Source: Adineta ricciae
Lineage: Eukaryota > Rotifera > Eurotatoria > Adinetida > Adinetidae
Direction of reading: 5' to 3'
DNA: 64,000 nt
NCBI GenBank assembly: GCA_905250025.1
Contig: CAJNOJ010000008.1
Coordinates: 372,001 to 436,000, forward strand
Shown here: piece by piece, positions 7,187-55,827 of the stretch
Layout of the letters: every line of letters begins with the position of its first letter
How positions within the stretch are numbered: position 1 is the stretch's first letter
Notes under the pieces: generated by a model
Told to the model about the DNA's origin: nothing
Databases searched by the model: none
Seen by the model: the letters and a program-made list of their open reading frames with translations, nothing else
Made by a program: the position numbers and the translations under genes

Positions 7187-7374
7187 AGTTCTTTTGTTTT
7201 GTTCTTTTTCTCCTTCTTCTCACGTTTTTATTCTTATCGTTCAGATTTTTCTTCTTTATTTTTAACCCTTGTAATTATATTTACGACATGCTGTACATTT
7301 GTTTTGTAAAACGTTCATAACTGAACAGGAAAGATAGATCGAAACATCACACATTTTTACAATAAAACCAACAT

Positions 7375-8662
7375 TTATGCAATATCCATTGTCAAACGCG
7401 CAGCACTTGAGAGTACATCGATTACCTCGTCGACGGTTGGACGTTGCTCAGGTTCAGTATGAAGCATGGAAAGCATGGTATCGATGATGATCGATGGATA
7501 GGTCGAGGATTGAACAGGAAGTTCAATGCGACCACTGGCAATGGCTAATGCAACACTGAATATACAACAGAAGTTCGATTTCATAGACAGCGAAAGGAAT
7601 AAATAGTGTCTTACCTATCTCCTCTTGAATATACATCGTCAAAAGGTCCTTTGCCGAAGCAGCATGCGTACAGAATCCCACCCAATGAGAAGATGTCCGT
7701 TTTCGAAGTGATTACAGCGTTTGTCTCGATATGAAATAACTCCGGAGCACGATCTATTCAAATCCATGTAATTTTATCGATCTTCATAGATTGACTTACA
7801 TTGTACGCAACAGTTTTCTTCTGCCCAATCCTAAACAGCTATGATCAAGTCGAAGGATTGCTTTCTTAATTAAACTCACCTGCCATTTTTGTGCATCAGA
7901 TCGGTTTGTGATGGAAATCGTAGCTGGTGTCATCGAACCAAAATCTAATATAACACCCTGGGAGTTATTTAACAGCATCACGTTACTAGGTTTTAAATCT
8001 CTATAAAATATAAATCAACAATCTTGCTAGCTGTCTGATTCAAGACAACCTGTGTGCCATTTGTTTCTCATGAATTTGACGGACACCTTCACAAATACTT
8101 AAGAATAATTCCAGTAACACACGAGTAGTAAATTTCGTTTGCCTATCGAAAACATTCTGCAATGATCCATTCTATCGAACATGAAGGTGAATAACATTGA
8201 GCCCAAACACAATTTCGATGATTACTTTAAAGTAATGGAAAACTAGCCAGAAAATACTTGTCACATGTGCACTAGGACTATATTTCACTTGTTCGTGATA
8301 CAATAGTGAAACTAAATAGAAAGATCTGTAGAGAAGAAAGATCCAGCGAGAATCTTTTCGCCAACCTAAATTTGAATGCGAAAATCTTTGATAGTTTTCT
8401 ATTTCATCTCGCGCACGTTTTTCTTCTTCATCCGTATGACATGACATTTTCTTCACTGCATATTGATGACTATCTGCTGTATTCCGTGCTTCGAATACAT
8501 AACTGAAACTCCTAAAAACAACAGAATCCATTCACCAACTATTCTCCCTAAGCGCGAATTCGATCTCAAAGCTTAAGCAAACTACCCTTCGCCAATTTGA
8601 CGCATGAGATAAAACTTTTGTCCTTGAATGACCACACTTTGCCGTCCGCAGACACAACCCAT
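7375..8662 (-). CDS. STK16: STK16/MPSK1-like Ser/Thr protein kinase (copy A)
   Basis: Eight exons (8586-8662, 8366-8511, 8226-8311, 8050-8171, 7880-8000, 7800-7830, 7615-7753, 7375-7555) give 300 aa; the vertebrate protein is about 305. The N-terminus MGCVCGRQ carries a Gly2 myristoylation site next to Cys residues suited to palmitoylation, as in STK16, a Golgi and membrane-associated kinase of the NAK family. The glycine loop GEGSFSYV is at 24-31, the ATP lysine is Lys46, the catalytic loop HRDLKPSN is at 143-150, DFG is at 163-165, and the RAPELF activation-segment end and a DIFSLG-type subdomain IX follow. All key kinase residues are present, so it should be active. STK16 is linked to secretory trafficking. 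One exon is only 31 nt. The E93-like gene follows upstream on the same strand. Confidence 0.93.
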
Positions 8663-9152
8663 ATTTCTAGAAACTCGAAAAACAGAACAGTTGTATATGT
8701 ATTGCACAAAACAGGACATGAAAAGTTCTTTATTATTTGCTTTTTGTGTGTGCACGCTGGATGGCCTAGTCGAATAACACAGATTTAAGAAAAAAGAAAG
8801 AAACAACAAGAACAAATACTGAATGTGTTTGTAGCAACAGACAATGATGCACATTTAGATATACAATAAAGAAAAATGACAGACAAACTTGGAAATGTTT
8901 TGTTAAAAGAACTGAAAAGAAAATTCACACAACAAAGATTCCTCTCTCCTCCATGTTTTCAAATGCACGTACGCAGACTGTTAGGAAAGAAAATGACACA
9001 TGAAGATTCTCTCATGGATGCGTTCTTGACTAGTAAAAACATGTACTATAGATCTATATACACATTGAAACAAAAAGTAGAAATTGATGTATGGATGTGT
9101 AAAAATGAGTAGAAAGATGTAGAGAAGAAGATTAATTGATTGTCGAAGAAAA
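8663..9152. other. Spacer between STK16-like start and E93-like stop (copy A)
   Basis: About 490 bases with no supported gene. It must hold the STK16 promoter and 5' leader and the 3' UTR of the E93-like gene, both on the minus strand. Short frames on both strands show nothing recognisable. Confidence 0.4.
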
Positions 9153-11083
9153 TCAATTGAGACATTCTTCGAGATCATCATCAGCATCATTCGAATCATT
9201 CTCGTCATCGATTTCGTTCAGATTACTGTTTGAGAAAGGTATACAACTACCAAGACCTTTCGATGATTTATCGTCATCGTCATCTTCATTATCACCACCT
9301 GGAATATTTCATGATAAGCTTCATCAAACAAAAACAAATTCCACTCACCCTGTGACATTACATTGTTATCATTATCATTAATAGATGTCGATTCATGCTT
9401 AGGCTTAGCTGTTGACGATGTTTTCGTATTTCTTTCTTTGACTTTGTATTCCAACTGAAACATGCATTGATAGAATGGAAAACTCAGAGTTAATCAAACT
9501 CACCGTCGAGTGCGGTACGCCGAAATAGGAACCTGCTTTATGTACAGACATTTCATTGCTTAAAACCGCTGCGACTGCTTTAGCTAGTTGTTCCGATTCA
9601 TAACGACGATACTGTCCACGCTTTGGACGGATTTGTTTGCCATCATTACCAATATTAACCTTGTTATTATTATTTATAATATCCACCGATCGTCCTTTCG
9701 GAATGTATGACGTTGACTGATGTGATTTGGACTTATGTTTACTTTTCTTATGAATCGATGACGAACTAGTCAATGAGACACTCGATGCAGATGAAGAACT
9801 TGAAGACGGAGGATTGACCTTGTCGACATGCTAAGCAGATAACAATATTTTACAGTATGAACACAATTGAAATGAATCCATCTACAAACCTTTTGTGACT
9901 TTTCAGTGCTATTGCTATGATTAGTATTATTGTTAAAATGGTTAAAAATATTTGAGTTGTATTGTTCATCATTATTGGTATTTTGCTTTTTAACAAACAA
10001 TAGTTCACCTTTACGCGACGCACGCGGTTGTGGTGTAGATGTGGTTACCGCTTGCTGTTGTTGCTGTTTTTGTTTCTCGAACATTTCGTGCAATATACGC
10101 ATCATGACATCATTAAGTAAATGATTAACATGAAATGATTCGGTGAGAATAGATGATGAATGATTGGATGAACTCTTTGATTTCTTATTGACTGAAGATG
10201 GATGACGTTGACATTCAATTTCTTGTAGCATTCGTTCGTATGCCATTTGTTTGGCTAACTGAGCAATGCGATTATCTTGCGAGATGGAACTTTTCTTTTT
10301 CGGTGGTTGAGAGTGTAAAATCGGAACTGTCGGCGATGTTGGAAACAGATTCAAATTCATATACGGTTGAGGTGAAAATTCTTAACGAACATAACACTTT
10401 CAATCCAACGATGACATTCAATTTGTCAAGACTCTACCTAACTGACTGGTGATCATTTCAGACATAAAACGATCGAATTCTTCTTGACCATATATTGATG
10501 GCATATCTGACTTGATATCAAACATTGGTCGATGTCTACAAAGGAAAATGTTTGTTTCGTGAGAACTTTCTCGTGCGTGTGTATTTACTTGACATTTGTT
10601 CGATGATTTGAGGTGATCAATGGCGGATGACTTGCGGTTGACTTTAAACTTAAGTCCAGTGGTGCATTTTCCTCGTCGTCAATAACTGTTTCTTTAATGA
10701 AATGATGCGGATGCTCGTTCGATCGACTGAGATGTTTTTTACTGCCTAAATATTCTTGTCGATTGAGACAAAACAAACATTCTTGATCGGCATTAAAATC
10801 AACTGGTACTTGTTCTTCTACAAAGTCGAAATGTCAGTCTTTTCTGCATAAAAATCTTGTTTTTCCTCACCATCTTTATCTTGGAATATGTTCACATCGA
10901 ACTCCAAATGATTTTTTGATATTGTCTCTAATCCTGAAAAGATAAAACAAGCATGTTCTTTGTTTTCTTGTTAAAATTTTTCCCTTTACCAATTTGTAGC
11001 AAGACATTTTTGGTCCATTTATTAAATTCTCGTCGAGCTAATTTACGATCCTGTTGACAACGAGCTGAATAACATTCCGTCAT
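9153..11083 (-). CDS. LCOR/E93 (MBLK-1)-like transcriptional regulator (copy A)
   Basis: Eight exons (10990-11083, 10871-10933, 10589-10817, 10438-10535, 9890-10380, 9504-9830, 9349-9454, 9153-9298) join into 517 aa. Residues about 393-443 (KRGQYRRYESEQLAKAV, then VPHSTLEYKVKERN) match the psq-type helix-turn-helix DNA-binding domain of vertebrate LCOR and insect E93/Mblk-1. PLDLSLK at 105-111 is a CtBP-corepressor docking motif, also found in that family. The rest is low complexity: poly-Gln, poly-Asn, Ser-rich and an acidic tail. An N-terminal block with spaced Cys residues resembles the conserved N-terminal region of E93. The protein should act in the nucleus as a repressor or steroid-axis regulator; its targets here are unknown. 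An AG directly precedes the chosen ATG, so a 5' non-coding exon is possible. Confidence 0.87.
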
Positions 11084-11502
11084 CTGAAATATTCAGTTGA
11101 AAACAAACATGAAATCAAACGCGCTTTTTGAAAGTTAAAAAACGTTTTCTGGCACCGTCAAACTCGATTAATTAGCTATTCAGTCATGCAGTCAACAAAA
11201 AGAAACATGACATAATGACGAGATAAATTAGAAACAGGAAGAGCTTCTATGAAATTCTCCATGTGATAAAGAAAACATCACTTTTCTACCAATCAACAAT
11301 CAGCTACCATTAATATCGTAAATGAACACCTTGAATGTTTTAATTGTAGTTTATTCCTCGCACAGATGGCGCAAGTTGTTTGAAGAACGAACAATTTTCA
11401 TCAATGCTTATTAGAAGAAAAGATTAAATATATATTTTTTGTTTGAAAATGACAAAAAATAAAAAGTAGAATTGATGAATAAAATATGCATACATAGGAG
11501 TG
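11084..11502. promoter_or_regulatory. Conserved non-coding tract upstream of E93-like gene (copy A)
   Basis: This 419-base gap lies between the E93-like start and the CFAP57 stop. Positions 11146-11383 differ from copy B (28267-28504) at a single base, far less than nearby introns, so the tract is probably promoter or 5' UTR of the E93-like gene. No specific binding site could be assigned. Confidence 0.5.
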
Positions 11503-14500
11503 TCAATGAGCTGTTAATGCTGATGGGATCGGTGGCAGTTGTCCCGAGGTCGGACGCGATCGATTACCAGTTGCTGAACTACTACGTCTATTGCCGGACT
11601 CCATAATAGCAATTTGTTCGTGAAGTCGTTGAATTTCCTGGCGTTGATGTTGGATTAAATTCTCTAATTCTCCTTGTCTTTCTTTGACAATGTGTGCGTT
11701 CTGATGTGTATTCAATGCTTGAACAATATCTTCTGTGGTACGTGCAGCTGTTTTACGACTGATACCCATAGCTGTTTGAAGTTCTTGTAACTTAACTCGA
11801 GCAGCTTTCAATTCGCGTCGTAGATCGTTGATTTCTTTGATTAACGTGACGTTTTCCTGAGTAAGTGAACGTTTGAAATGAGGCTAAAATCGTTTGGGTA
11901 AAACGAAAACTTACTTGCATGATACGAATGTTTTCTGTTTTGTGTCTTTCGGAGTCCTTATCAACTTTAGCCTAGCAAAAAAAAGCAATGAGAGACAGGT
12001 TCGAGTGAAAATATCAAAATACCTTTAAACTTCGAACAGTTCGTTCGAGATGATCACGTTGTCGAGCATATTCTTTAGTTATGTCTTGATCGATATTGGC
12101 TTCTTCGGTCTAATTCAATGAAAATTAGTTCAAACAAAGTGTTATTTCGATGGTCATTTACCGCATCTTCTCGAACATATTGAGCATAGATCTCGGCAAC
12201 GCGTTGTGTCAATAATTTTGGTTCGGTAATCAATGCTGAACAATTGTGAATATCTGTTTTGATACGTTTCAAAGCCAGTTCCGAATCTCGTTTCTATTAG
12301 AAATGGAAAAATCGATTAGCTTATGGATGCATAAGTTTCATTGACAAACCATTTGTTTTTCTTGTTGTAAAGCTAGAGAGGACGCATTTAGTTTCGAACG
12401 TAATTCTTCATTTTTCAGTTTTTCTTCATCATTGCTTTTACTCAATCGTTCAAGCTCAGCTTCCATCTGAAAGAACAATCAATTTTCGAAAACTGAATGA
12501 ATAAAGAAGAGAATAATGAAGATTATTTACATTTGTAATTTGTTCCTTTTTATCTTTGATTTCAATTTCACGCGGTTCAATTTGTTTCTTCAATTCTTTG
12601 ATCTTATAATCCAAGACGAACTTGAATTTTTCTAATTCTTGATTTTTACGTTTCAATTCATAAATTCGTTTTTCCTAGAGGAACATATTCGATAACGTTT
12701 TTCTTTCCTACAAAAGATTTTACTTTATCTTGAATGGTTTCATCCCGCTCTTGGATTTCTTTTTTCAATCCTTCGATATCCTTTTTCAGCCCACGAATAT
12801 TATTCTGTAATTTTACTTCTTCACTCTTGGAATTTCCCAAATCGACTTCTTTCTTTCGAATACCTTCTTCTAAATCTTTCACCTTGGCAATGATAAAAAT
12901 GGAATCGCTCGTTTTTCCTGCAAATATCAACCTACTTTTCGTTGATAGGTTGTACTTTTATTTCTCAAATTGACGTTTTCTTCTTTGCATTGACTCAACG
13001 CTTGTTCATTTGCTTGCATTAATTTGAGAATTTCTTCATCGGCATCCTCTTCAATTTGACGTTTAGTTTCCTCGTAATCACGCGATTGTTGTTTGCCTTT
13101 CTCATGTTCCTTAATAATGATACAGATGATAGATGAAGTTTAATTCGAAAATAACATACGACAAATAGTTGGTTTTTGATCTTCTCGAGTTCCGTGGTGT
13201 ATTTCAATCGTTGCCGTGCGACGTCTTCTTCTTTCTTATTTTCCAATTCGGTCAATTGCCGTTCGTAGTCTTCTTGGGTTTTCTGGGTTTTACTTTGAAG
13301 ATCTTGATATTTCTCATATTCGAGCATGAGCTTTTGATTATTGGAACTTTCTACGAACAGACAAAAGAGAACAAATCAAAACTTCGTTCAGGAAAATTCT
13401 ATTCAACTGATACGCAAATTCATGGCTGATTAGATCAACTTACGAAAAGAAGAATACTACATGAAAATAATGTTTTAAGAGAAAACTTCTTAGAGAAGAG
13501 ATCTTCCTTACCTAAATCTTGTAATTCTTTGGTTTGCTTTTCCAGAAGATCATGCAGTTGTTCAGCATGTTTACTAGCCTCTTTTTCTTTTTCGGCAGTA
13601 ACAACGGTATGTTTCATTTTCAAATTCTCCATTTCTTGCATTAATTTATCACCTAAGTCACGAATTCGTTCCGTGTAAGTCATGTCTTTCAGTTTCAATT
13701 GATAATCATTCTCTTCACGCAATTCCGACACACGTTGTTTCAATTCACGTATCAGTGCGTTCTTCAAACAGATCGAATTTACTAGCGAGAACAGATCAAA
13801 ACAGAATATTTACTTTTTCTTCCAGGTCACTTTTTGTAATCAGAATTTCCTCAGCATAGATGATGTCTTTCTCTTTTTTCGCAATACCAACTTCTTGTAA
13901 GGTCCATATGATGACAATACCATCATCACCGACAGTGATAGCATATTCATCTAGATATGTGATGCGTAACTAAATAAAGATTATGTTTGAATAGTAAACG
14001 ATTGGAGCCAGGAATTCAAGTGCATTACTCGATTGATCATGCCAACATGTCCGACGTATTCGGTGAATTCATCCGGTTTCGATAATGGGAATGCGTATGA
14101 CCGAACAGTTCCTTTCGAAGTGCCAACTAATAAAGATTTACCCGTATGACTAATTGCAATCGATGTCGGCTGAACGTCGTCCGGAGTGATTGGAAGTTCA
14201 CGAACGATTTGCTAAAAACGAAATTGACTTAATCATCTGTCAGAAATAAGTGAGAAGAGAACAAACTTGTGCTTCGTAAATTTCCTTAATTTTTCTATCA
14301 GTACCCACAGCAAATACTGTTTTAGCATCAGCGCTAATGCCGAGTCCTGTGTAACCACATGCTTTTAGAACGGCCTCGTGTAATCGTTTCGAGGTTGCCA
14401 CTTCCCATTCATAGATGGCTCCATCCATACCACACGAGAACAATCGTGCATCATCCGGTGACCAAACCAGCTGTCGGACCTAAAGGTAAAACTTTATTTC

Positions 14501-16457
14501 AACATTTTTCTATCGAATGCTCAACAGACTTTGCCATTGTGTCCTTTTAAACTGGTGACAGAGTCTAGAGTAATTGTAGAATAGATTTGAATCACATTGC
14601 CATGTACGGCAGCAAATAAGTGTCCACCATTGCTAAACAACGCTTCACGACAACCACGGATAGGAATGTCTTTGAATAGACGAAGGTCATCGATCAGGAT
14701 TGTGAATAATTTCAGTTTATCTGCAAATCCAACGAGAATGAACAAGCCCGATGGATGTAGAGAAACAGCATAGGCTTCTTCTTGAAACTCTTTACATATC
14801 TCAAGTGCACTAAAACAAATTGCATTGCTCGTTTTATCGAAAAGATACAAAATAATAAACTCTTACCCTGTTTCATAATTCCAGATTCGGACGGTTTTAT
14901 CGACGCCGCAAGTGGCGATCAGTTGTTTTCGAATACAAGTATCACATCCAGTCACTTGAGCACAATGATTGCCATCTGCTAAGAATGTGAACGTAGCAAC
15001 ATCCTAAAACATAGGAGAAATGAAAAAAAAAACAAAATGTTGTTGATAGTGATCCCTTACTTTGGTGATATCGATGTTGGAAAACGAAACTTGATAGATT
15101 TGTTGATGATCTGTAGCAACAACTAACGTCTCTTCCGAAGGACTTAAACACATGGAAGCAACTTGTTGGTTATTCATCTTCTCAGAATTGTTGGGCAAGA
15201 CAATTTCTCGATTACGTCGATAATATTCTCGATTGTCATCAATTCGATCGAACATATATACTTTGTTAACGCCAGCAGCAACCAGAATACCACGTGAAAA
15301 TGGTACGATACATGTCACTTCAGATTTATTGGCATAATTATCCTCGAGATTAATGTCCATGTTACTTTCACCAATGCCTACACGATCGTCACCAGAATGT
15401 AGACTTGTTACGGATCTGAAATGTATTCAAAAATAGAAAACCTTCAATGTTGAAAGTTACTGTTTTACCGTGACTCAAATTTTGCATCAAGTTTGATCTC
15501 ATGAAGGATTTCACCGTTTTGGATCAAAAACAGTTTGCCTTGATCAGTGCCAGCTAACAATCGTTCATCCGATACCCAGCAATGGCAAGTGAAATTGTGT
15601 TGCTCTTGTTTAAGATTTTGAGATGGTTTCAATACGGATTCGTTATATCGAAACATTCTGAAGATGCCATTGCCAATCGCACATATCTGAGTATTATCTT
15701 GAGGATTGAACGAGACCTAAACAATACGTGGGACTTCAAAGCTTGCTTCACTAGTATTTTGTATGTTTTCATCGGTATTATTCGTGAAGCTTTATGAGTG
15801 CAATGAATAGGAAATCTAACTTAGTTGAATTCTTTTCATTATACTCAATTAAGGCCGACTATATTGGCTTTTCGTATTTAGAGATAATCTCATTAGATTA
15901 GCTATGTGGATAACGAACCTGATTAACCGAGGCAGGCGCTTGTGAAGCTGTTGTTGATTTTATATCAATGCTAGCCATCACCTTTCCTTTTTCCCAAGAC
16001 CAATAGATGAGCGAGTGGTCGGGAGCTCCACCTTGCGTCAATAAATATTTCGAATCCGGTGAGAACAGTAATGAAACGATATCGCTAGACTTCATTGTTT
16101 CAGGTTGTAATGTTTTTCTTCGTTTACCAGTTTGAAGATCATAGATGGTCACTGATGGATGATCGTTGATTTTTTCAGCAATGGCTATCACACGTCGATT
16201 CGGACTAACAGTCATTGTTGTCAGTGCTAGAAAACATCATATTGTTGTTTATATCACATATGCTAATGAGAACTTTTACCTTGAGCGTTGATTGAACATG
16301 GAATAACTCTTTGTGATTTCTGATCGATACCATATAGGACAATATTTCCACCAGCGATGTATACAACGGTCTGCTCATCTTGAAATGCCAAGCCGTTCGT
16401 GACCAAACTTCGCACACCGATGACTTGTTTTACAGAAAGAACACCAGGTTGAGCCAT
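11503..16457 (-). CDS. CFAP57: CFAP57 (WDR65), ciliary WD-repeat and coiled-coil protein (copy A)
   Basis: Nineteen exons from 16280-16457 down to 11503-11856 sum to 3723 nt, an open frame of 1240 aa; human CFAP57 is about 1250. The first 650 or so residues are WD40-type repeats forming beta-propellers (for example [42 protein letters not shown]). Residues about 690-1190 are a nearly continuous coiled coil rich in Glu, Lys and Gln, and the C-terminus is a short Ser/Thr/Arg-rich tail. CFAP57 is an axonemal protein of motile cilia associated with inner dynein arm assembly, which fits an animal that swims and feeds with ciliary bands. The start [17 protein letters not shown] matches the conserved opening of the family. 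An X-box-like motif lies about 150 bases upstream. Confidence 0.94.
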
Positions 16458-17258
16458 GGTTTAAGAGAATGATCGAATTGAGGAGTAACAGGTAACTATC
16501 GGTCTGTTTATTGACAGAATACTTGACACTTTATTGTAATTCAACAAATGTAATCTAAACTCATTTCGAATGTATATGAATATCAGTGACCATTTTTGAT
16601 TGTTATAACCATGACAACAGTGGTGTACAGGTAAACATTGAAACTACTTAAAAAATAGTCCAAGAAAAAAAAATCGATATTTAATTATTAGTGGATTGAG
16701 AGAATCCAGATGAGTAAAATTTATTGTTAATTTCAATTGAAAATTTATATACGATTGTATGTGGCGCTAGTTGCATCATTACAGATTTTACATGCAAGAA
16801 TTGCTGCTTTGAATTTGAAAACGAAAGAATGACAGTTCAGTTCAAATTAGAGTCGAGAAAGTAAACTATCTATGATCCAATGAATGTTTCGTGCTGTCAT
16901 AACGATTTCCTTGTGGTAAACCGAATGTTTTTTTTTAATGTTTCATACTTAACAATTAATGTATCTCGAGGGCGAGAGTATGTTGACTTTATGCATGGTT
17001 CACAATTATCTATCGTTCGTTGCTATCGACGATCTACTATATTATCGGGCAAAGCTTAAAAATGCACGCCGCCGATATTCATTCAGTCCACGTGTGTCGC
17101 GTGTATATAAATAGATATCACGTAGAACCAGAAAGAAAAATCTTGTTTATTGAAAATGAAGAATACATGAAACAAGAACAGAGATAAAATCTCTTCAACT
17201 ATCCCAAAGAATATATATGAAGATGAGCGATCACTATAAGTCTCATAATGAAAAATTC
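16458..17258. other. Spacer between CFAP57 and NUPR1-like genes (copy A)
   Basis: About 800 bases without a supported gene. The left part is the CFAP57 promoter (conserved island 16483-16629). The right part is the 3' flank of the NUPR1-like gene. Copy B differs here by several substitutions and small indels. Confidence 0.4.
16605..16618. promoter_or_regulatory. X-box-like RFX binding site upstream of CFAP57 (copy A)
   Basis: The sequence ATAACCATGACAAC fits the ciliary X-box consensus GTHNYYATRRNAAC at 13 of 14 positions (the first base is A, not G). It lies 148 bases upstream of the CFAP57 start codon, within the distance usual for RFX sites of ciliary genes. The surrounding 147 bases are identical in copy B. 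Function is inferred. Confidence 0.5.
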
Positions 17259-17541
17259 CTATTTCTTTTCGTGTTTTTGATTCTTTTCATTATTGACCAT
17301 GGCTTGAACAATCTTTCGTGTATCACCGCCAGCATCGTGATGTTGCGAGTTCAATTGTACTTCCACTTTACTACGTTGTTTGCCACCACTAATCAACACA
17401 TATTTAAAAGTTTTTAATAATCTTCGCGATGAATGTTTTCGCTTGTCGTTACCTGCCGGCGTTTAAATACTTTTCATATTGTTCATAGGTATCTTCGGGA
17501 TTCTGTTCAGCTAATGCTGAGGCCGAATTTGTCGACGACAT
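17259..17541 (-). CDS. NUPR1 (p8)-like small stress-response nuclear protein (copy A)
   Basis: Two exons (17453-17541 and 17259-17388) give 72 aa; vertebrate NUPR1 is about 80. The pattern DTYEQYEKYLNAG, then a Gly-Gly-Lys basic stretch, then GGDTRKIVQAMVNNEKNQK parallels the conserved core of NUPR1: acidic-aromatic helix, Gly turn, bipartite basic region, and a GGHERK-like segment with a Lys-rich end. NUPR1 is an intrinsically disordered chromatin-binding protein induced by cell stress. The gene is too short to stand out as one frame because the 64-bp intron splits it. The two window copies encode the same protein; they differ only at silent positions. Assignment rests on pattern matching of a short, low-complexity protein. 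Confidence 0.7.
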
Positions 17542-18161
17542 TGGAAATAGTTACGTTGAATAGTCTAGAAAAATTCGAATGAAACGATTTGTGTGTAGCG
17601 GTGAAAGATCAAACGAACGCAAAAATGTGAAATGTTTTACTGATATTATAGTCTCCGTCGTCATCGTCACCTCTACGAACGAAATAGAGAAGAACAGCTG
17701 CGCCACTTGACTAAGCCTCTATTAAACTATAGGAGCGATGTTTCGAGAAAAACGAATATCTACAAAGGAAAGAAAAAGTCACATATGGTTAAAATCACAT
17801 GCCAAGGAAAAATTCGAAACGATAGTTTTTTTCCAAAACGAAAAAATTCGACAGAAGAAACGTTCATTTAATTCTTCGATTGACAAATCTATGATTTAAC
17901 AAAGACGATAATTATTTATTGATGCAAATTTGATGTCGATAAATAATGCACGAAAGAAAAAGTTGTTAAAAGAAAACATTGAAGAAAAGATTTGCTCCGT
18001 CTGGCATTCATACAACAATTTTGCTTTGAATCTCTCTGAGAATGTTGATAAACAAATCAACGGCTGATTAATGGATTGCACAATACCATATATTATCCGT
18101 TAGATTGAATATACAAACATTCCTATTTCTGCGTTCGCGTTCTTTGGAAGGCAAAGCAATT
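17542..18161. promoter_or_regulatory. Shared 5' region of divergent NUPR1-like (-) and CD225-like (+) genes (copy A)
   Basis: The two genes are divergent and separated by 620 bases, so their promoters share this region. No open frame with a motif is present. No clear TATA or heat-shock element was identified. Confidence 0.4.
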
Positions 18162-18673
18162 ATGTTTTCTTCACAAGTGTGTTCGATCTTTCATTCGCAT
18201 CCTAAACTAACTTCGTGCCATTGGTCATCACCAGGTCGATCGATAACAAATGAGCGGGGTACTACTTCATTCGGTTATGGTAAGACAATGTCGCAAGATA
18301 TGATTAAATATTATCCTTCTCATTGGTTTAGAACAATCATGCCAAAGTTCAGCACAATTATTTGTCAATAAAAAAGCACATCCCAAACGACACCTTCTCT
18401 GTGCACTTATTGCAACTATCTTATTCCTTCCGACTGGTAAATGATAGAAGTCAGAACAAAAAATGAATCGTCATTTGTTGATATCTCATAGGTCTGGGAG
18501 CGATCTATTTTGCATCAAAATCTTGGAAATGCGAGTGCCATGGCCATTACGAACAAGCATTGATTTACTCGAATCGATCGTTTTCGTGGGCAGTAGCGAC
18601 ATTCGTCATTGCACTCTTCTTGTATTTGACCGTTGGTCTATTTATTGTTATCTGTAAATCTCGTCCGTATTGA
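18162..18673 (+). CDS. CD225/dispanin-like two-pass membrane protein (copy A)
   Basis: Three exons (18162-18279, 18332-18436, 18492-18673) give 134 aa. The N-terminal 65 residues are Ser/Gln-rich and probably cytosolic. From about 68 the pattern HPKRHLLCALIATILFLPTG begins an intramembrane or first transmembrane segment with a Cys-containing loop (KCECHGHYEQALIYSNRS), followed by a clear second segment (WAVATFVIALFLYLTVGLF) ending in KSRPY. This layout and the GLGAIYFASKS and A-x-x-YS-N-R-S-F motifs are those of the CD225 family (IFITM, PRRT, TMEM233, TRARG1 types), which act in vesicle fusion and trafficking. Subfamily cannot be told. Copies differ by a few residues. Confidence 0.75.
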
Positions 18674-18827
18674 AAACAAATATATGTATTTATGAGCAAT
18701 CGTTCAATCGAAACAACTGATATTTATTGAGTTTTTTTCTGAGGTGAATAAGAAATATCTAACTAAAAGAGCAAGATTAAAATCGCAGTCTAGCTAATTT
18801 CTGTTTATAGACGAATTTGAATAGTTT

Positions 18828-24316: not shown

Positions 24317-24317
24317 N
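24317..24317. other. Single undetermined base at repeat joint
   Basis: The only N in the window. It lies exactly between the PABPN1 exon 1 sequence and the start of the second copy of the F-box 3' flank, as expected for a scaffold joint of unknown size written as one N. Confidence 0.95.
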
Positions 24318-31600: not shown

Positions 31601-33571
31601 AAGGTAAAACTTGATTTCAACATTTTTCTATCGAATGCTCAACAGACTTTGCCATTGTGTCCTTTTAAGCTGGTGACATGGTCTGCAGTAATTGTAGAAT
31701 AGATTTGAATCACATTGCCATGTACGGCAGCAAATAAATGTCCACCATTGCTAAACAATGCTTCACGACAACCACGGATAGGAATGTCTTTGAATAGACG
31801 AAAGTCATCGATCAGGATTGCAAATAATTTCAATTTATCTGCAAATCCAACGAGAATGAACAAGCCCGATGGATGTAGAGAAACAGCGTAGGCTTCTTCT
31901 TGAAACTCTTTATATAACTCAAGTGCACTAAACCAAATTGCATTGCTCATTTTATTGCAAAGATACAAAATAATAAAACCCTTACCCTGTTTCATAATTC
32001 CAGATTCGAACGGTTTTATCTATACCACAAGTGGCGATCAGTTGTTTTCGAATGCAAGTATCACATCCAGTAACTTGAGCACAATGATTGCCATCTGCTA
32101 AGAATGTGAACATAGCAATATCCTAAAACATAGGAGAAATGCAAAACAAACATTTTGTAGATAGTGATCCTTTACTTTGGTGATATCGATGCCGGAAAAC
32201 GAAACTTGATAGATTTGTTGATGATCCGTAGCAACAATTAACGTCTCTTCCGAAGGACTTAAACACATGGAAACAACTTGTTGGTTATTTATCTTCTCAG
32301 AATCGTTGGGCAAGACAATTTCTCGATTACGTCGATAATATTCTCGATTATCATCAATTCGATCGAACATATATACTTTGTTCACGCCAGCAGCAACCAG
32401 AATACCACGTGAAAATGGTACGATGCATGTCACTTCGGATTTATTGGCATAGTTATCTTCGAGATTAATGTTCACATTAGTTTCACCAATGCCTATACGA
32501 TCATCACCAGAATGTTGACTTGTTACAGATCTGAAATATATTCAAAAATAAAAGATCTCCAATATTGAAAGTTTCCGTTTTACCGTGACTCAAATTTTGC
32601 ATCAAGTTTGATCTCATGAAGGATTTCACCGTTTTGAATCAAAAACAGTTTGCCTTGATCAGTGCCAGCTAACAATCGTTCATCAGATACCCAGCAATGA
32701 CAAGTGAAATTGTACTGCTCTTGTTTAAGATTTTGAGACGGTTTCAATATGGATTCGTTATAACGAAACATTTTGAAGATGCCATTGCCAATCGCACATA
32801 TCTGAGTATTATCTTGAGGATTGAACGAGACCTAAACAATGCGTGGGACTTCAAAATTTGCTTCAGTAGTATTTTGTATGTTTTCATCGGTATTATTCGT
32901 GAAGCTTTATGAATGCAATGAATAGGAAATCTAACTTAGTTGAATTCTTTTCATTATACTCAATTAAGGACCACTATACTAGCTTTTCGTATTTAGAGAT
33001 AATCTCATTGAGTTAGCTATGTGGATAACGAACCTGATTAACTGCGGTAGGCACTTGTGAAGTTGTTGTTGATTTGATATCAATGCTAGCCATCACCTTT
33101 CCTTTTTCCCACGACCAATAGATGAGCGAATGATCGGGAGCTCCACCTTGCGTCAATAAATATTTCGAATCCGATGAGAACAGTAATGAAACGATATCGC
33201 TAGACTTCATTGTTTCAGGTTGTAATGTTTTTCTTCGTTTACCAGTTTGAAGATCATAGATGGTCACTGACGGATGATCATTGATTTTTTCAGCAATGGC
33301 TATCACACGTCGATTAGGACTAACAGTCATTGTTGTCAGTGCTAGAAAACATCATCTTGTTGTTTATACACATATGCTAATGAAAAATTTTACCTTGAGC
33401 GTTAATTGAACATGGAATAACTCTTTGTGATTTCTGATCGATACCATATAGGACAATATTTCCACCAGCGATGTAAACAACGGTCTGTTCATCTTGAAAT
33501 GCCAAGCCATTCGTGACCGAACTTCGCACACCGATGACTTGTTTTACAGATAGAATACCAGGTTGAGCCAT
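28624..33571 (-). CDS. CFAP57: CFAP57 (WDR65) (copy B)
   Basis: All nineteen exons of the gene at 11503-16457 can be followed here with intact frames. Amino-acid changes are few: MAQPGILSV for [22 protein letters not shown] for [13 protein letters not shown] in the coiled coil, and [10 protein letters not shown] for [10 protein letters not shown] at the C-terminus. Introns differ more, for example in the 13.40/30.51 kb intron where four bases are lost. Both copies appear able to make the ciliary protein. Confidence 0.93.
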
Positions 33572-34369
33572 GATTTACGAGAATGATCGAATCGAGAAGT
33601 AACAGGTAACTATCGGTCTGTTTATTGACAGAATACTTGACACTTTATTGTAATTCAACAAATGTAATCTAAACTCATTTCGAATGTATATGAATATCAG
33701 TGACCATTTTTGATTGTTATAACCATGACAACAGTGGTGTACTGGTAAACAGTGAGACTACTTTAAAAAAATCCAAGAAAAAAAATCGATATCTAATTAT
33801 TAGTAGGCTGAGAGAATCCAGATGAGAAAAATTTATTGTTAATTTCGATAGAAAAATTCTATACGATTGTATGTGGCGCTAGTTGTATCATTACAGATTC
33901 CACATGCAGGAATCGCTACTTTGAATTTGAAAACGAAAGAGTGACAGTTCAGTTCGAATTAGAGTTGAGAAAGTAAACCAGCTACGATCCAATGAATCTT
34001 TCGTGCTGTCATAACGACCTTCTTGTAGCAAACTGAATGTTTTTTCTGTTTCATACTTAACAATTAATGTATCTCGAGGGTGAGAGTATGTTGACTTTAT
34101 GCATGGTTCACAATTATCTATCGTTCGTTGCTATCGACGATCCGCTGTATCATTGGGCAAAGCTAAAAAAATGCACGCTGCCGATATTCATTCAATCCAC
34201 GTGTGTCTCGTGTATATAAATAGATATCATACGTAGAATCAGAAAGAAAAATCTTGTTTATTGAAAATGAAGAATACATGAAACAAGAACAGAGATAATA
34301 TCTCTTCAACTATCCCAAAGAATATATATGAAGATGAGCGATCACTATAAGTCTCATAATGAAAAATCC
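33572..34369. other. Spacer between CFAP57 and NUPR1-like genes (copy B)
   Basis: Counterpart of 16458-17258. The promoter-proximal 147 bases are identical to copy A; the middle part has several substitutions and short indels. No gene seen. Confidence 0.4.
33719..33732. promoter_or_regulatory. X-box-like RFX binding site upstream of CFAP57 (copy B)
   Basis: ATAACCATGACAAC, identical to 16605-16618, placed 148 bases upstream of the copy B start codon. The spacing is also conserved. Confidence 0.5.
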
Positions 34370-34655
34370 CTATTTCTTTTCGTGTTTTTGATTCTTTTCA
34401 TTATTGACCATGGCTTGAACAATCTTTCGTGTATCACCACCAGCATCGTGATGTTGCGAGTTCAATTGTACTTCCACTTTACTACGTTGTTTGCCACCAC
34501 TAATCAACACATACATAGAAGTTTTTTTTATTAATCTTCGCGATGGATGTTTTCGATGGTCGTTACCTGCCGGCGTTTAAATACTTTTCATATTGTTCAT
34601 AGGTATCTTCGGGATTCTGTTCAGCTAACGCTGAGGCCGAATTTGTCGACGACAT
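34370..34655 (-). CDS. NUPR1 (p8)-like stress-response protein (copy B)
   Basis: Two exons (34567-34655 and 34370-34499) of exactly the same lengths as in copy A, encoding the same 72 residues; only silent changes were noticed (for example GGC to GGT in the GGDTRK segment). The intron differs by substitutions and a three-base length change. Complete amino-acid identity against intron divergence suggests purifying selection. Confidence 0.7.
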
Positions 34656-35272
34656 TGGAAATAGTTACGTTGAATAATCTAGAAAAATACGAATGAAACG
34701 ATTTGTGTGTAGCAGTGAAAGATCAAACGAACGCAAAAATGTGAAATGTTTTACTGATATTATAGTCGTCATCGTCACCTCTACGAACGAAATAGAGAAC
34801 AGCTGCGCCACTTGACTAAGCCTCTATTAAACTATAGGAGCGATATTTCGACAAAAACGAATATCTACAAAGGAAAGAAAAAGTCACATATGGTGAAAAT
34901 CACATGCCCAGGAAAAATTCGAAACGATAGATTTTTTTTCCAAAACTCAAAAATTCGACAGAAGAAACGTTCATTTAATTCTTCGCAATTGACAAATCTA
35001 TGATTTAACAAAGACGATAATAATTTATTGATGAAAATTTGATGTCGATAAATAATGCACGAAAGAAAAAGTTGTTAAAAGAAAACATTGAAGAAAAGAT
35101 TTGCTCCGTCTGGTATTCATACAACAATTTTGCTTTGAATCTCTCTGAGAATGTTGATAAACAAATCAACGGCTGATTAATGGATTGCACAATACCATAT
35201 ATTATCCGTTAGATTGAATATACAAACATTCCTATTTCTGCGCTCGCGTTCTTTGGAAAGCAAAGAAGCATT
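34656..35272. promoter_or_regulatory. Shared 5' region of divergent NUPR1-like and CD225-like genes (copy B)
   Basis: Counterpart of 17542-18161 with small deletions (the TCATCGTC repeat region is shorter). No gene seen. Confidence 0.4.
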
Positions 35273-35794
35273 ATGTTTTCTTCACAAGCGTGTTCGATCT
35301 TTCATTCTCATCCTAAACTAACTTCGTGCCATTGGTCATCGCCAGGTCGATCGATAACAAATGAGCGGGGTAGTACTTCATTGGGTTATGGTAAGACAAT
35401 GTCGCAAGATATGATATGATATGATTAAATATTCTCCTTTTGATTGGTTTAGAACAATCACGTCAAAGTTCAGCACAATTATTTGTCAATAAAAAAGCGC
35501 ATCCCAAACGACACCTTCTCTGTGCATTTATTGCGACTATCTTATTCCTGCCGACGGGTAAATGACAAAAGTCAGGACAAGAAATGAATTGTCATTTGTT
35601 GATATCTTATAGGTCTGGGAGCGATCTATTTTGCATCAAAGTCTTGGAAATGCCAGTGTCATGGTCATTACGAGCAAGCATTGATTTACTCGAATAGATC
35701 GTTTTCGTGGGCAGTAGCAACATGCGTCATTGCACTCTTTTTGTATTTGACCGTTGGCCTATTTATTGTTATCTGTAAATCTCGCCCTTATTGA
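35273..35794 (+). CDS. CD225/dispanin-like membrane protein (copy B)
   Basis: Exons 35273-35390, 35453-35557 and 35613-35794 have the same lengths as in copy A and give 134 aa. Residue changes include Cys to Arg in EQSCQSS and Thr to Ser in the N-terminal region; both membrane segments are kept. Intron 1 is longer by a short ATATG-type tandem repeat near 35409-35424. Confidence 0.74.
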
Positions 35795-35948
35795 AAACAA
35801 ATATATGTATTTATGAGCGATCGTTCAATCAAAACAACGGATATTTATTGAGTTTTTTTCTCAGAGATGGATAAGAAATATCTAACTAAAAGCAAGATTA
35901 AAATTGCAGTCTAGCTATTTTCTGTTTATGGACGAATTTGAATAGTTT

Positions 35949-38900
35949 CTATGCCAATGTTACACGGAATGTTCGAATTTGCATGGGATTTAAAACGATA
36001 TTCACATCTTTGATAGAGATTTTTTCTAGAAGAGGAAAAAGACGATAGTGAAAAGTCAACGAAGGATATTTGAAACTTACTGGGCTTTCTCATCTTCGAT
36101 GATTCACCTTCTTTAGTTATCCATTCTAATCGTTCCATATCAGCTAATGCTAAATTACCTGCTAAAGTTAATTCAACAATATCAGTAATAGTGCCTTGTG
36201 TTTGGAATAGTTGTTGTAAATCAAATGTAACTGCATTTGAATACGTATCATCTTCATTCACTTCAAAGTAGTGTTCAACACGAATTAAATATTGTTTGGC
36301 ATCGAGTTGATCGAATGTCAACAAATGAATATTCAATGGAAGGTCCTTTGTTAGAGCAGACCATGTTTGACGATACGTAGCAGAGTAATCAGCGTAGGAT
36401 AAATGCGGTAAAGCATAGGTTGCTAGTGGACGCATGTATAAGTTCTGAGATTGAAATCGATGATAGAGAGCACTTGATTGAGGCTTGTCGACGATGAGAA
36501 AATGTTTACCACGAACAACAAGACCTTGTCCGAAAGCAGTTTCATTTAAGGGCTCGCCAACACCGAGTGCATCATCAAAAAGCGTACGTCTGTGTACCAT
36601 CAGTTCGAGTGAACCATCGCGGACGCTGCTACCACCTTCGGATCGATCTACGGACAAGAAAACATATGAAATAGAGAATCTTTTGTGATTTCTATCGTAC
36701 CAGTGAGTACGGTTAATTGTCGATTAGATTCTTTAATCCAAATACGACTATTGACTGGATAGTAGTTTCCGCTGACTGCTTCGACTTTTGTGTAATTCCA
36801 CGTGGGACGATAATCTCGTATACGTTCGAGAACTTCACGTCCATTAGCATCTGTATAAAATTTCGCTCCACTTTGAATGTCTGTATCGTAACGAAGAATA
36901 ATTTCTTTGCCAATATCGTCTGCGATTGGTATCGGTCCAACTGTCCATTGAACTTCAACTGCTTTTGAATCGTCATACAGAGTAATTTCTTGACTGGCCC
37001 ATTCGTTGAAGACAATCACAGCTGTTTGAATAGTTTCACCTTTAATACATGTTCTAACAAATATCGGTGATCATCATGTTTTCTCAGTGTATCAAAAAGA
37101 ATCGACTTACATCGAACGATTGCAACTGACTTGCTGCGGATCTGATGAAATCGGTCGAAATATGTACGCACCAGATGCTTGAAATTCTGATTGAGAGTTA
37201 TTACCCGGTGCACCTAATTTGTCGATGTTAGTTATACATCTCATACGAGAATTAAACTCACTTGAATACCAATAGACTCCTTGACTTGTAAATGGAACAG
37301 CAATATTCTTTTTCAAGTTTGTGATTTTCAGTAGATTTCCATTATTATCGAATTCAACTCGAAGATACTACAAACGTATAACAGATTGAAACCTAATTAG
37401 ATATATATTTGATTATATTCCTGTTACTTCGTTTTCTAGGACACATTGATCATTCTCACTAATCGAAACGTCAGTCTGTTCATCAATTTCACCGGCTAGA
37501 AAAAAAATCATACTTTTTTGTTTATGATGCTCAATTCCATTTTTTAATATTTACTTTTGACTTCAAAATAATATGTATTGAAACCAAGAGCTGGTAAGAG
37601 AACCTTAAAGACAAGTTGATTGGTAGCGAAACTCTTTCGACCGGGAATTTTCTTTGTTGGTTCAGATATTGGAATGAACTATCGAAAGCACATTCAAAAA
37701 CATAAGAAATCATCTGAAATGGATCATACGTCAGCTAAAACTGCGTGTCCGGTTGCGTCACGGACGGAATATTTTTTTGTCACAGGTACTCGAACATGAC
37801 GAGTAATCGTGTGTACAGTTGGATTCCACAGTGTTAATGTGAACTATCATAGGTAAATAAAAGAAATTCAGAAAGAAAGTCTTTTATTGCACCTACTTGA
37901 TCTTGTCCTTCGATCGGTAAACATTCGCTAATGTTTGTTAACTGACAAAGAAATTGGGGTGCTTTTGGTGGTATTGTCGCATTCTTTGATAACAATTTTA
38001 TATAAGCAGCATTGATCACATCCTAAAAAGTTACAAAAAATGTTCGTTGCTTATAGATTTTGGTTTGATTTCAATATACCACTGCTGCATCAACACCCTC
38101 CGCTAGACGTTGGGCATAATCTTCGGCAACATGTTGTTTTTCCGTTCCACTTACTCCATCGTGATGTTGAACAATACCCATTGCTTCGCCTAGAATAAGA
38201 TCGGTATGGTTCGATATGTTTTCTCTCTCTCTCAAAGGAAACTGTCTTACTCAACGGAAACGTTTTATTGCGTAAATTAGTGTTGGCAAATGCATTCAAC
38301 TGTCTAGTTGCTTGTAAAACATTGTTTGTGCGACGTTCATAACCTTTCAATGCTGCTCGTGATGTAAAGTAGCCAGTCCAAAAGCCATGTGGATGATGTG
38401 AATACGGAAAGAAGTCATCTGTTTTCGATGTCCAAAGACGATCAGCTTTATTCAGAGCATACAGATAACATGATGGGGTCGAATAGAACACATTCACGTC
38501 GCTACCATTGGCTTGCTAAATATATTTTCTTGGTTGAAACAGAATAATCGAATCGAGCGACTCAATACCTGTGCATTGACGTATTTGATAAGTTTATCCA
38601 TATTTTTAAACCATTCATTAGCATTTTCGTATTGAAAATCACTACCCATAGTCATAATGATATGATTTGTTGCAAAGCCATATGCCTAAAAGATGCTTTG
38701 ATGATTTATTTCTTAATTGTAAAAATAGCCCACGAACCTCGTTATGTGCAGTATCGATAAATGCTTTAACTCGCTGTGGAACGTTATAATCATGTAAACG
38801 AGGATCATCCTAAGAAAGTATATTCATGTCGGGGATGAAACCAAACAAGAGCAACTCACCATGATTGGTTCATCATCGCAAAATAGATCGAAACAAAAGG

Positions 38901-39887
38901 AACTGGGAGGACTATACTGATTTGGTAAAACACCGGTTAATAGCCAAGCTTGACGGTCTACATATACATGTAACATCTTTTCATCGAGTTCTCTGATATT
39001 TCACTCAATCTTTACCTAGATTCGCACTAGCTTTCCAGAGCATTTCCATGGTCTTTGTTTTATTACGTTGATTGTAATCTTCGTAATCCGAACGACCAAA
39101 AAACAGACCATCAAAACCCATCTATGTTAATTATCAAAACTGGTATTTCAGTCAAATGATCTAAGAAAAATCGAAAACCTGTGCAAAAAGAGATGCTTGC
39201 TCCCTGGAGTGCCCGAAAGGATCGATCTGCCAACCGATCTTTGGTCGTCCGCATTCACCGAATTGATCACGTAAAAATTCCGCTCCCAACGCATGTTGAT
39301 CAATGATTGAATTATAGTGCGTCGACGCTTCATCATTCATACACCACCCACCAGAGATGAATTCCAAACGGCCTGTAGAAAATCAATGCATAACTCTTTG
39401 AACTTTAGCGAAATATTCTACCTTCACTAACGAATTTCTTCACTTTATCATGTATTTCATCCGTTTGCTGATTCCACCAGCGCCAGAAAAAGGCCATTTC
39501 AACGTAGATAAAACGGCGATCAGGATTATCTTCCAATGCATGCACCAACGAATCGAGAACATATTGAACTCCAGCATGTTGAATATTATTTCGAGCTGAA
39601 TAAAATCGAATTTATCCTACAAGAAACTTTAGTATACTCTCATCTACCTCCATAATAATACTGATCAACGGTTTTCAACCATCCAACATCGTCGTGCGTA
39701 TGTGCAACTATATGAACATTGAGTTTCTTCGGATCACCAAGATTGCATGCCTAGGCAGAAGACTGTATTAAATATCAAGAATATCAATCAATCTTACAGC
39801 ATAACCACAACCATTTGATGATTTGATAGGTACTGCAATGCAGAGCGCTATTGAAAAGGATAGAAATGCGATGAACGAAATGTACAT
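35949..39887 (-). CDS. MAN2B1: Lysosomal alpha-mannosidase, GH38 (copy B)
   Basis: Follows copy A exon for exon. [34 protein letters not shown] and QHHDG motifs are unchanged. The C-terminus reads MNPMQIRTF-like (a Lys to Asn change brings it closer to the family NPMQIRTF form). The intron after the KTFPLS exon carries a CT-rich insertion. Because the splice sites are intact, the enzyme should be complete. Confidence 0.93.
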
Positions 39888-40346
39888 TGTACAAAAATCA
39901 CAAACTAGAATTGAAAAGAGCAGATTGAACTGAATGAATGTCGGCTATGAACACGAACTTACCCACTTGTGATTGGTAAAGAATGATGTTGAAAGAAACT
40001 GTACCGGGACAGTCTTTATCACAGTTTAATGATAATAAAAGAAATAAATCTATAAATTAACAGTCAAACGATTATTTGATAAAACATTACACATGAGATC
40101 AAGTACATTTTCACTATTTCAACATGAATAGATAAGAAAAGTAGAAGTATATAAATATATTTAAAAAGTAACGAAAGATAAATGCGAGTTTATCAGAAAT
40201 GCTTATGATAAAGGGTCATGGTCAAAAATAGCATTATATGACACACCTTGTTCAGTGCAACGAAAGATATCACGTGAAAATATTCTAAAAAAGTGCAGAC
40301 CCAACGAAGTGTATCCGTGTAAACAAGCGCAGGTGATACCAGTGCT
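39888..40346. other. Spacer between mannosidase start and JTB stop (copy B)
   Basis: Counterpart of 22758-23217, about 460 bases, no gene seen. Confidence 0.4.
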
Positions 40347-40838
40347 TCACTCGTCGCTAATATCAATCTGTCGTTTGATTCTCTCAATCATTTGTTTATC
40401 TAAAGTCTTTTGTCTCCAATAAACACTAATAACCGATAGTAAACTTAGGCAAAACATCACACCTTCAAAGTACCAGAAGCGTTCCTTTTGAATATAGATT
40501 GGTACTGGACATGCGCGATAGACTTTAATGTTCGACTGTGGACAAAAAACTGATTCGCGAAAGCCTGTCGGTGAACAACCCATAGCTTTCGAACGCATGT
40601 TAAACGCTGAACACTTTGTACAGGAATCAACAACATCAACTGTCTCTGTAAGATAACATGGATATCTCTGTTGATCATCGGTTGTAGACATGTTTGCCGG
40701 TGTTGATGAGTGCATCGATGACATTTTCGTCATGATAAACATTGATTGTAAACGCGCTATGAAGACGATGCTTACTGTCAGGAATAAAGTAGCGGTAGCA
40801 CAAATAATAAAACGACGACGAGTTAAATAATCAATCAT
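40347..40838 (-). CDS. JTB: JTB family membrane protein (copy B)
   Basis: 163 aa, same length as copy A, with conserved Cys residues and basic tail. Changes include His to Gln in the signal-anchor flank, Ser to Pro and His-Lys to Gln-Arg in the extracellular part, and Leu-Met-Phe-Ser to Val-Met-Phe-Cys in the membrane segment. A two-base difference just upstream of the ATG breaks the upstream in-frame extension seen in copy A, which supports this start. Confidence 0.92.
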   Translation of the reverse strand: MIDYLTRRRFIICATATLFLTVSIVFIARLQSMFIMTKMSSMHSSTPANMSTTDDQQRYPCYLTETVDVVDSCTKCSAFNMRSKAMGCSPTGFRESVFCPQSNIKVYRACPVPIYIQKERFWYFEGVMFCLSLLSVISVYWRQKTLDKQMIERIKRQIDISDE

Positions 40839-41353
40839 GAGTAGTTGTATCTAAAAATAGGATGCAATTTTACAATGTGACTCATTATCTACAATGGAAC
40901 CGAGTGAAAGAGTCCAAAATACGCACCTGAGATGTTTGCCTTGTTGTCTTCTTTGCAATCAATCTTGTCAAGTATGATGTTCAGGGATGCTTTTGTAAAT
41001 AAAAAACAATCATGATACCGTTTCGCTTGATTAGCGTAGCCAACAAAAGGTACATATATATATTTTAACATTTATTCACCGTGGTGCAACCGCTATCCAA
41101 TCACTTCATCACCAGTGACATCTGGCAAATGAAAAAGAAACAAATTGAAATTTATTCGTAAAAACTGATTGAACTCTTTCTGTTTGAGTTTTTATCTAAA
41201 ATTTTAGCTAGGCCTAGGATAACTATCAATCAAACCAATCGTCACAAAGAACTAGATGTTCACACACACACACATCTAATTGTGTTTATTATTTTTAATT
41301 CTTTCTTCCAATAACTGGTGACATAGATATTCTTATCTATTGATTAGTGTATC
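40839..41353. promoter_or_regulatory. Divergent region between JTB and PABPN1 (copy B)
   Basis: Counterpart of 23710-24225. It includes the (CA)n run at 41261-41274. No gene seen. Confidence 0.4.
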
Positions 41354-42323
41354 ATGGAATCCGCAGCACAGAACGGTAATACTGATAAGGAAATATCTTC
41401 AAAAACTAATGCTATTCTTAGTTCAGATGATCAACAAAATGTATCCGATTTGCTTTTGGATACATCCGAAATGGGCGACGAAGCAGATTTGGAATCCATG
41501 CGTAAACGAATACGAGAAATGGAGGAAGAAGCAGAAAAACTGAAACAAATGCAACTGGAAGTTGAAAAGCAAATGCAATTGCCCAGTACGCCTGGTACAC
41601 GTAAGTTTCTTTTCTACTTACATATACAGTAATCTAGGTTTTATCTTTTCGATTAGCTCCATTTCCAACCATCGAAGAAAAAATGGAAGCAGATTTACGA
41701 TCGGTCTATGTGGGAAATGTATGTTGATAAGAGAAGACTCAACTAGTTTCGTATCGTCCGTTTTCAATTTAGGTGGATTATTCGGCAACAGCACAAGAAC
41801 TTGAAAATCATTTTCATGGCTGTGGTTCAATTCACAGAGTGACGATATTATGTGATAAATTTACTGGTCAACCGAAAGGGTATGAAAAGGCGTGCGTATA
41901 TCCGATTTTCTTTATTCTTTTTCTTCTAGTTTTGCCTATGTTGAATTCTCTGACAAAGATTCTGTACAGACTGCTCTTGCACTTGACGATTCTCTCTTCA
42001 AAGGACGTCAGATTAAAGTAAGAAGACCAAAATAATTCTATTTTAATAGGAAGAAGAGTATTTCAGGTAACTGAAAAACGAACAAATCGTCCTGGTGTAT
42101 CATCTACAGATCGACCACCTCGTGGTGGACTTCGTGGTTTTGGGCGTGGCCGATTTCCTCGCGGTGGCGCCTATATGCCTTACATATCTGCTCCATATCG
42201 TGGCCGAGGCGCTCGACCATTCTTCCGGTATTCTAATCACTCGTGATGGAATCTTGGATACCATCTTTGTTTTGTACTTTTAGGGGACGCGGTCGATCGA
42301 GTTATTTCTTTGCGCCCTATTAA
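41354..42323 (+). CDS. PABPN1: PABPN1, nuclear poly(A)-binding protein
   Basis: Six exons (41354-41600, 41657-41718, 41773-41879, 41930-42017, 42067-42227, 42284-42323) give 234 aa. An acidic start is followed by a coiled coil at about 47-75 ([18 protein letters not shown]), the helix that activates poly(A) polymerase. A single RRM at about 97-172 has RNP2 (SVYVGNVDY) and RNP1 (KGFAYVEF). The C-terminus is Arg/Gly-rich ([29 protein letters not shown]), the usual site of arginine methylation and nuclear import. The protein controls poly(A) tail length on nascent mRNA. The mammalian N-terminal poly-Ala stretch is absent, as in other invertebrates. This is the only complete copy in the window. 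Confidence 0.95.
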
Positions 42324-55791: not shown

Positions 55792-55827
55792 ATATTCTTC
55801 AGCTTCTTTTTTCAAATCGATCGCCGG

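What the first reader, a model, noticed from the sequence alone, without database searches (positions are those of the whole stretch)
7208..41444. Two 17.1 kb near-identical blocks in direct tandem with a single N at the joint: probably two haplotypes laid end to end
Copy A (7208-24316) and copy B (24318-41444) carry the same seven complete genes plus the start of PABPN1 in the same order. Differences are scattered substitutions and small intron indels, as between alleles. The outer ends are identical for about 91 and 120 bases, and the joint is an N. This is the signature of a heterozygous bubble whose two arms were scaffolded in series. If taken at face value the window would overstate gene number by seven and imply same-scaffold allelic copies, a point once debated for bdelloid genome assemblies.
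Basis: partly seen in the sequence, partly recalled or inferred. Interest (0 to 1): 0.75.

Follow-up and report, generated by a model that had tools for sequence, protein, structure and literature searches.

The report
Two haplotypes misjoined end to end
The apparent 17-kb tandem duplication in this rotifer genome is almost certainly an assembly error that laid the two versions of one stretch end to end, and the same error appears to recur elsewhere in the assembly.

Summary
Copy A (7208-24316) and copy B (24318-41444) stand in direct order with one N between them. They differ by 5.04% substitutions and 36 small gaps; the outer ends are identical for 121 and 221 bases (not 91 and 120).

The artefact reading is strongly supported. 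Assembly statistics match Adineta ricciae Ar_ARIC003. Divergence and pooled Ks (0.131) equal published allelic values (5.5%; 0.135). Copy A has two near copies, side by side; searched flanks have one. B's left tip is shared for exactly 121 bases, a k-mer length named in the paper; a second joint, on C223, again gives exactly 121, though between B's own two tips. Three of three long allele-level tandem blocks examined have a one-base N at the joint, whereas an older tandem gene pair on C3 has none.

So B is most likely an unmerged graph contig carrying the other haplotype, set in series by a scaffolder. Reads were not available; the joining tool is not identified; the third joint (C3) lacks the 121-base tip. 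Same-scaffold allelic false duplication is a known artefact class.

The parts
1..7207 (.). left flank, single copy in the assembly; weak F-box-like exon at 5159-5509
   Evidence: the self match plus three matches of 66-75% over at most 355 b; (below the curated cut-off)
7208..24316 (+). copy A (one haplotype), continuous with the left flank
7208..7328 (+). 121 b exactly shared with the start of copy B: inferred graph vertex where the haplotypes part
   Evidence: in the window this 121-mer occurs only at 7208 and 24318
24096..24316 (+). 221 b exactly shared with the end of copy B; holds the start of the PABPN1-like gene, cut by the N in copy A
24317..24317 (.). single N, scaffold joint; no suffix/prefix overlap of 5 to 399 b across it
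24318..41444 (+). copy B (other haplotype), continuous with the right flank
24318..24438 (+). first 121 b of copy B, identical with 7208-7328
41224..41444 (+). last 221 b of copy B, identical with 24096-24316
41348..42246 (+). exons of the PABPN1-like gene (RRM) running from copy B into the right flank; gene model not made
41445..64000 (.). right flank; 41445-49444 single copy, with stretches of 66-80% identity on contig C3 (ohnologous)
   Evidence: also a 49-b 85% match on C40 and a 30-b match on C20; searches are 10-kb queries in which the self match is not listed
19530..22309 (-). GH38 alpha-mannosidase exons in copy A; the family is multi-copy in the genome
23221..23760 (-). JTB gene in copy A (counterpart at 40350-40850 in copy B)

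Best explanation
The block is a false tandem duplication. The assembler (SPAdes, apparently with k=121) separated the two roughly 5%-diverged haplotypes of Adineta ricciae over this stretch, giving one contig of left flank plus haplotype 1 (copy A) and another of haplotype 2 (copy B) plus right flank. Because the two contigs overlap only in part, the step that removes redundant haplotigs kept both, and a scaffolder set them end to end with a one-base gap. In the animal the stretch exists once per homologous chromosome. Shown: two copies at allelic divergence, single-copy flanks, a tip of exactly 121 bases, like joints elsewhere. Inferred: the pipeline steps, and why the scaffolder joined these two ends.
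For: Assembly: contigs C127-C130 are 284,915, 283,933, 277,305 and 281,877 b and C1033 is 10,113 b, against published N50 283.8 kb, L50 129, GC 35.5% for Ar_ARIC003; GC of the window plus 200 kb of C3 is 35.9%. Method: 'reference' assemblies are haploid and start from SPAdes; a final k-mer of 121 is named for the companion maxhap assemblies. Tips: copy B's start matches copy A's start for exactly 121 b; on C223 the two tips of block B are reverse complements for exactly 121 b. Divergence 5.04% and pooled Ks 0.131 (18 of 24 ORFs, those with Ka/Ks<0.5) or 0.133 (4 ORFs >=150 aa, unfiltered), against homolog Ks 0.135 and allelic heterozygosity 5.5%. Copy number: three queries that together cover all of copy A each find two near copies (94-100%), both on C8; flank queries of 7.2 and 8 kb find one. 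Recurrence: C3:247684-284810 / N / 284812-321947 (six BLAST pieces of 90.5-95.2%; 5.9% substitutions; Ks 0.157), and C223 from 102660 / N at 142495 / from 142496 (94.4% over 3.7 kb, 88.0% over the first 1.9 kb). Control: a tandem GH38 gene pair on C3 (333749-337388 and 338646-342178, 80-90% alike in three pieces) has no N. In the window the A tip occurs only at the ends of A and B, and nothing overlaps across the N.
Against: No read depth or spanning reads could be examined. The paper names k=121 for the maxhap assemblies and 'default settings' for the initial assembly, so its use here is inferred. The C3 joint shows no exact 121-b tip: the outermost identical runs are 3 and 58 b. At C223 the 121 b lie between B's own tips, not between A and B; A's own tips agree for only 32 b from the outside. 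The window's A end matches for 221 b; I read this as the shared edge up to the next heterozygous site, untested. The scaffolder for A. ricciae is not stated in the sections read, and why it joined ends that overlap by 17-37 kb is unexplained. Nowell et al. 2018 report conflicting read-depth signals in A. ricciae and name segmental or partial genome duplication among possible causes, and Jaron et al. suggest that ploidy may differ; this leaves some room for real duplications. One more single N (C20:516638) could not be tested.
Confidence: 0.96

Rival explanations
1. A true tandem segmental duplication of 17 kb on one chromosome, old enough to have diverged by 5%, with an unresolved gap at the junction.
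For: Both copies lie on one scaffold in direct order. Pooled Ka/Ks is about 0.23, so both look constrained, which alleles would show too. The 2018 paper lists segmental duplication among possible causes of odd read depth in A. ricciae.
Against: It must reach the allelic Ks at two loci (0.131 and 0.157), have end identities seen at only 0.98% and 0.07% of internal points, give exactly 121 b at two joints, and have its breakpoint at a one-base N in 3 of 3 long blocks, while an older tandem gene pair on C3 is gap-free. Nowell et al. 2018 found only 2 same-scaffold tandem homologous blocks in an assembly from unamplified DNA of the same clonal culture.
Confidence: 0.03
2. Whole-genome amplification of the sample made a chimeric molecule that joined the two haplotypes.
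For: ARIC003 DNA was whole-genome amplified from about 200 clonal animals; the C223 joint has inverted repeats at its tips.
Against: The joint is an N, not a sequenced chimeric junction, and no overlap crosses it; the exact 121-b tips look like graph edges.
Confidence: 0.01

Closest known systems
False heterotype duplication (PMC9516828; passages seen)
   Same: Both alleles kept in a haploid assembly, on one scaffold with a gap between; that paper reports 7 to 24% of false duplications on the same scaffold in three older vertebrate assemblies.
   Different: Read depth and discordant pairs, which that paper uses, were not testable here; instead there is a tip shared for exactly the k-mer length.
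Same-scaffold homologous blocks in bdelloid assemblies (Flot 2013 as discussed in Nowell et al. 2018, PMC5916493; sections 7, 9, 16 and part 1 of section 6 read)
   Same: Allelic gene blocks on one scaffold in a bdelloid; that paper suspects scaffolding error for some structures.
   Different: In A. vaga 23 of 25 such blocks were palindromes and 2 tandem; these are direct tandem, in another assembly of A. ricciae.

Membership tests
False heterotype (allelic) duplication | two copies at allelic divergence in a haploid assembly | tested here: met
   5.04%, Ks 0.131 against published 5.5% and 0.135; searched flanks single copy
False heterotype (allelic) duplication | assembly gap between copies on one scaffold | tested here: met
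   single N at 24317; likewise on C3 and C223
False heterotype (allelic) duplication | half read depth in both copies | not testable with these tools
   no reads held
False heterotype (allelic) duplication | discordant read pairs; one-copy k-mers in reads | not testable with these tools
   no reads held
True tandem duplication | sequenced junction between the end of A and the start of B | tested here: not met
   the junction is an N with no overlap of 5-399 b across it
De Bruijn graph edge (k=121) | contig tip of exactly k bases shared with another edge end | tested here: met
   121 b between the starts of A and B and between the two tips of B on C223; not seen at the C3 joint; k itself inferred for this assembly

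The most novel reading that the evidence does not exclude
A. ricciae really carries, at several loci, direct tandem pairs of allele-like blocks on one chromosome, so that 'alleles' are physically linked and cannot segregate as in ordinary meiosis; the unexplained read-depth signals of the 2018 paper would then have a cause.
Probability: 0.02. Interest if true: 0.85.

Novelty: not a real feature. Interest (0 to 1): 0.2.

Why it matters
Linked allelic copies were once offered as genomic evidence against ordinary meiosis in bdelloids (as told in PMC5916493). Here the pattern is best explained by contig tips of the assembler's k-mer length. It was found again in both other places followed up (C3, chosen for ohnology; C223, chosen because it looked like a pair), so gene-count, copy-number and linkage analyses based on this public assembly need de-duplication. 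A single N with a tip shared for exactly k bases is a cheap filter that needs no reads, though the C3 case shows that it would not catch every joint.

Tried and rejected
Considered a tandem duplication inherited from before the bdelloid genome doubling: rejected, because the ohnologous region on C3 has its own block with other boundaries and its own 5.9% divergence. Looked in print for SSPACE's habit of writing a single n for a negative gap: one search listing and passages of two papers gave nothing usable, so that is recalled only and not relied on. Tried to identify the organism further by COX1: the machine did not answer. The 10-kb queries do not list the self match, so the right flank was repeated with 8 kb. 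Nine probe pairs on C223 left of 100,300 showed no homology, which placed the joint. One search stopped with an error because exact 60-mers do not recur at the C3 joint; redone.

Full report
What is there. The window has one ambiguous base, N at 24317, and one long repeat pair, 7208-24316 and 24318-41444, in direct order, 94.5% identical. In a global alignment 860 of 17,074 aligned bases differ (5.04%), with 36 gaps, none longer than 12 b. Of 947 internal identity runs (runs of zero length included), 4 reach 121 b and 1 reaches 221 b; a random internal point has that much identity ahead in 0.98% and 0.07% of cases.

Which assembly. The window is contig C8:372001-436000 of a 130.46-Mb, 1033-contig genome. 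Contigs C127 to C130 are 284.9, 283.9, 277.3 and 281.9 kb, and C1033 is 10.1 kb. The eLife 2021 paper (PMC7943196; sections 15, 16, 17, part 1 of section 5, and passages seen) gives for Adineta ricciae ARIC003 135.6 Mb, 4302 sequences, N50 283.8 kb, L50 129, GC 35.5%. This fits the same assembly without sequences under 10 kb; it is a match of statistics, not a test of species by a marker gene. The paper describes its 'reference' assemblies as haploid and starting from SPAdes, with redundancy removal or reference-guided scaffolding for named species; the scaffolder for A. ricciae is not stated in what I read. A final k-mer of 121 is stated for the companion maximum-haplotig assemblies.

Alleles by divergence. 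Pooled Ks between A and B is 0.131 over 18 of 24 non-overlapping ORFs (those with Ka/Ks under 0.5) and 0.133 over the 4 ORFs of 150 aa or more without filter. Published values for A. ricciae homologs are mean Ks 0.135 (PMC5916493, section 7 read) and allelic heterozygosity 5.5% (PMC7953838, passages seen). Ohnologs have mean Ks 1.27; here they appear as stretches of 66-80% identity on C3. In 3 of the 24 ORFs copy B has in-frame stops; since the ORFs run from stop to stop and may include introns, I draw nothing from this.

Copy number. Pieces of 1.2, 8.0 and 7.9 kb, together all of copy A, each find two near copies, both on C8; the last also finds 58 matches of 63-76%, mostly GH38 paralogues and ohnologous stretches. 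The left flank (7.2 kb) and right flank (8 kb) find themselves, ohnologous stretches and matches under 100 b. Three 10-kb queries do not list even their own place, with one candidate unscored each; I do not rest on them.

The tip signature. The start of B is shared with A for exactly 121 b, a k-mer length named in the paper. In a de Bruijn graph the arms of a bubble begin with exactly k shared bases (general knowledge), so B most likely begins where a graph edge begins. A second joint gave the same number by another route: on C223 the B block's two tips are reverse complements of each other for exactly 121 b and then differ, as for an edge that leaves and re-enters one vertex through an inverted repeat. 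A's tips there agree for only 32 b. At the C3 joint no such tip is seen: the outermost identical runs are 3 and 58 b. In the window the last 121 b of A occur only at the ends of A and B, the first 121 b of B only at their starts, and no suffix of A of 5 to 399 b equals a prefix of B. So nothing in the sequence links the end of A to the start of B. The PABPN1-like gene that starts in the last 221 b of both copies goes on only right of B, which is where the end of A would lead.

It recurs. C3:230001-430000, fetched because it is ohnologous to the window, holds a block of 37.1 kb twice, in six BLAST pieces of 90.5-95.2%, 5.9% substitutions and 72 gaps in global alignment, three of them over 50 b, Ks 0.157, joined by a single N at 284811. 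Among 142 protein-kinase matches (1312 candidates, 122 scored) I picked one same-contig pair 39.7 kb apart, on C223: 94.4% identical over 3.7 kb, no third near copy, a single N at 142495 with B starting right after it and 88.0% identical to 102660-104573. B was read only to 148,087 and at the contig end, so its full extent to 172,133 is inferred. So 3 of 3 long allele-level blocks examined have a one-base N at the joint. As a control, the same 200 kb of C3 holds a tandem GH38 gene pair (333749-337388 and 338646-342178, 80-90% alike in three pieces) with no N between. Not tested: closer same-contig kinase pairs (such as C137, C289, C5, C243), the offset pairs on C270 and C352, and one more single N on C20.

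What remains open. Reads were not available, so depth and spanning molecules, the decisive tests, were not made. Nowell et al. 2018 found read-depth signals in A. ricciae that they could not settle and named segmental or partial genome duplication among the possible causes, which leaves some room for real duplications. Why a scaffolder set in series two contigs that overlap by 17 to 37 kb is not explained. The 221 b at the right end is probably the shared edge up to the next heterozygous site; this is inference.

Verdict. This belongs to the known class of false heterotype duplications (PMC9516828, passages seen). The 2018 paper found only two same-scaffold tandem homologous blocks in an earlier assembly of the clonal culture and warned of scaffolding errors (PMC5916493, section 9 read). 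I saw no statement about such blocks in the parts I read of the 2021 paper, and made no search of the literature for one.

Noticed in passing
L015-L023 (C3:247684-321947): A second tandem block, 37 kb twice at 5.9% divergence with a single N at C3:284811, in the ohnologous region.
   Followed up: yes
C223:102339-172133 (L056, L057, L076-L078): A third tandem block; copy A is bounded by inverted repeats of about 580 b (96%), and copy B, whose tips are also inverted repeats, seems about 10 kb shorter and ends with the contig (its middle was not read).
   Followed up: partly
L024-L025 (C3:333749-342178): A gap-free tandem pair of GH38 mannosidase genes, 80-90% alike, about 4.9 kb apart: what a genuine tandem duplication looks like in this assembly.
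   Followed up: partly
C270 near 56859 and 106843; C352 near 44612 and 73092: GH38 matches at constant same-strand offsets (49,984 and 28,480 b) suggest two further tandem blocks.
   Followed up: no
L013 position 1754 (C20:516638): Another single N, not tested for a tandem block; its two sides within 3 kb are unrelated.
   Followed up: partly
L039 (C50:1-20): The first 20 bases of contig C50 read N, either a gap at the contig start or a withheld stretch.
   Followed up: no
window:19530-22309: GH38 alpha-mannosidase is a multi-copy family in this genome, with several matches each on C3, C181, C267, C270, C352 and C374.
   Followed up: no
L026 (C3:351527-353012): A tandem array with a period of 141 b, copies 85-88% alike.
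   Followed up: no
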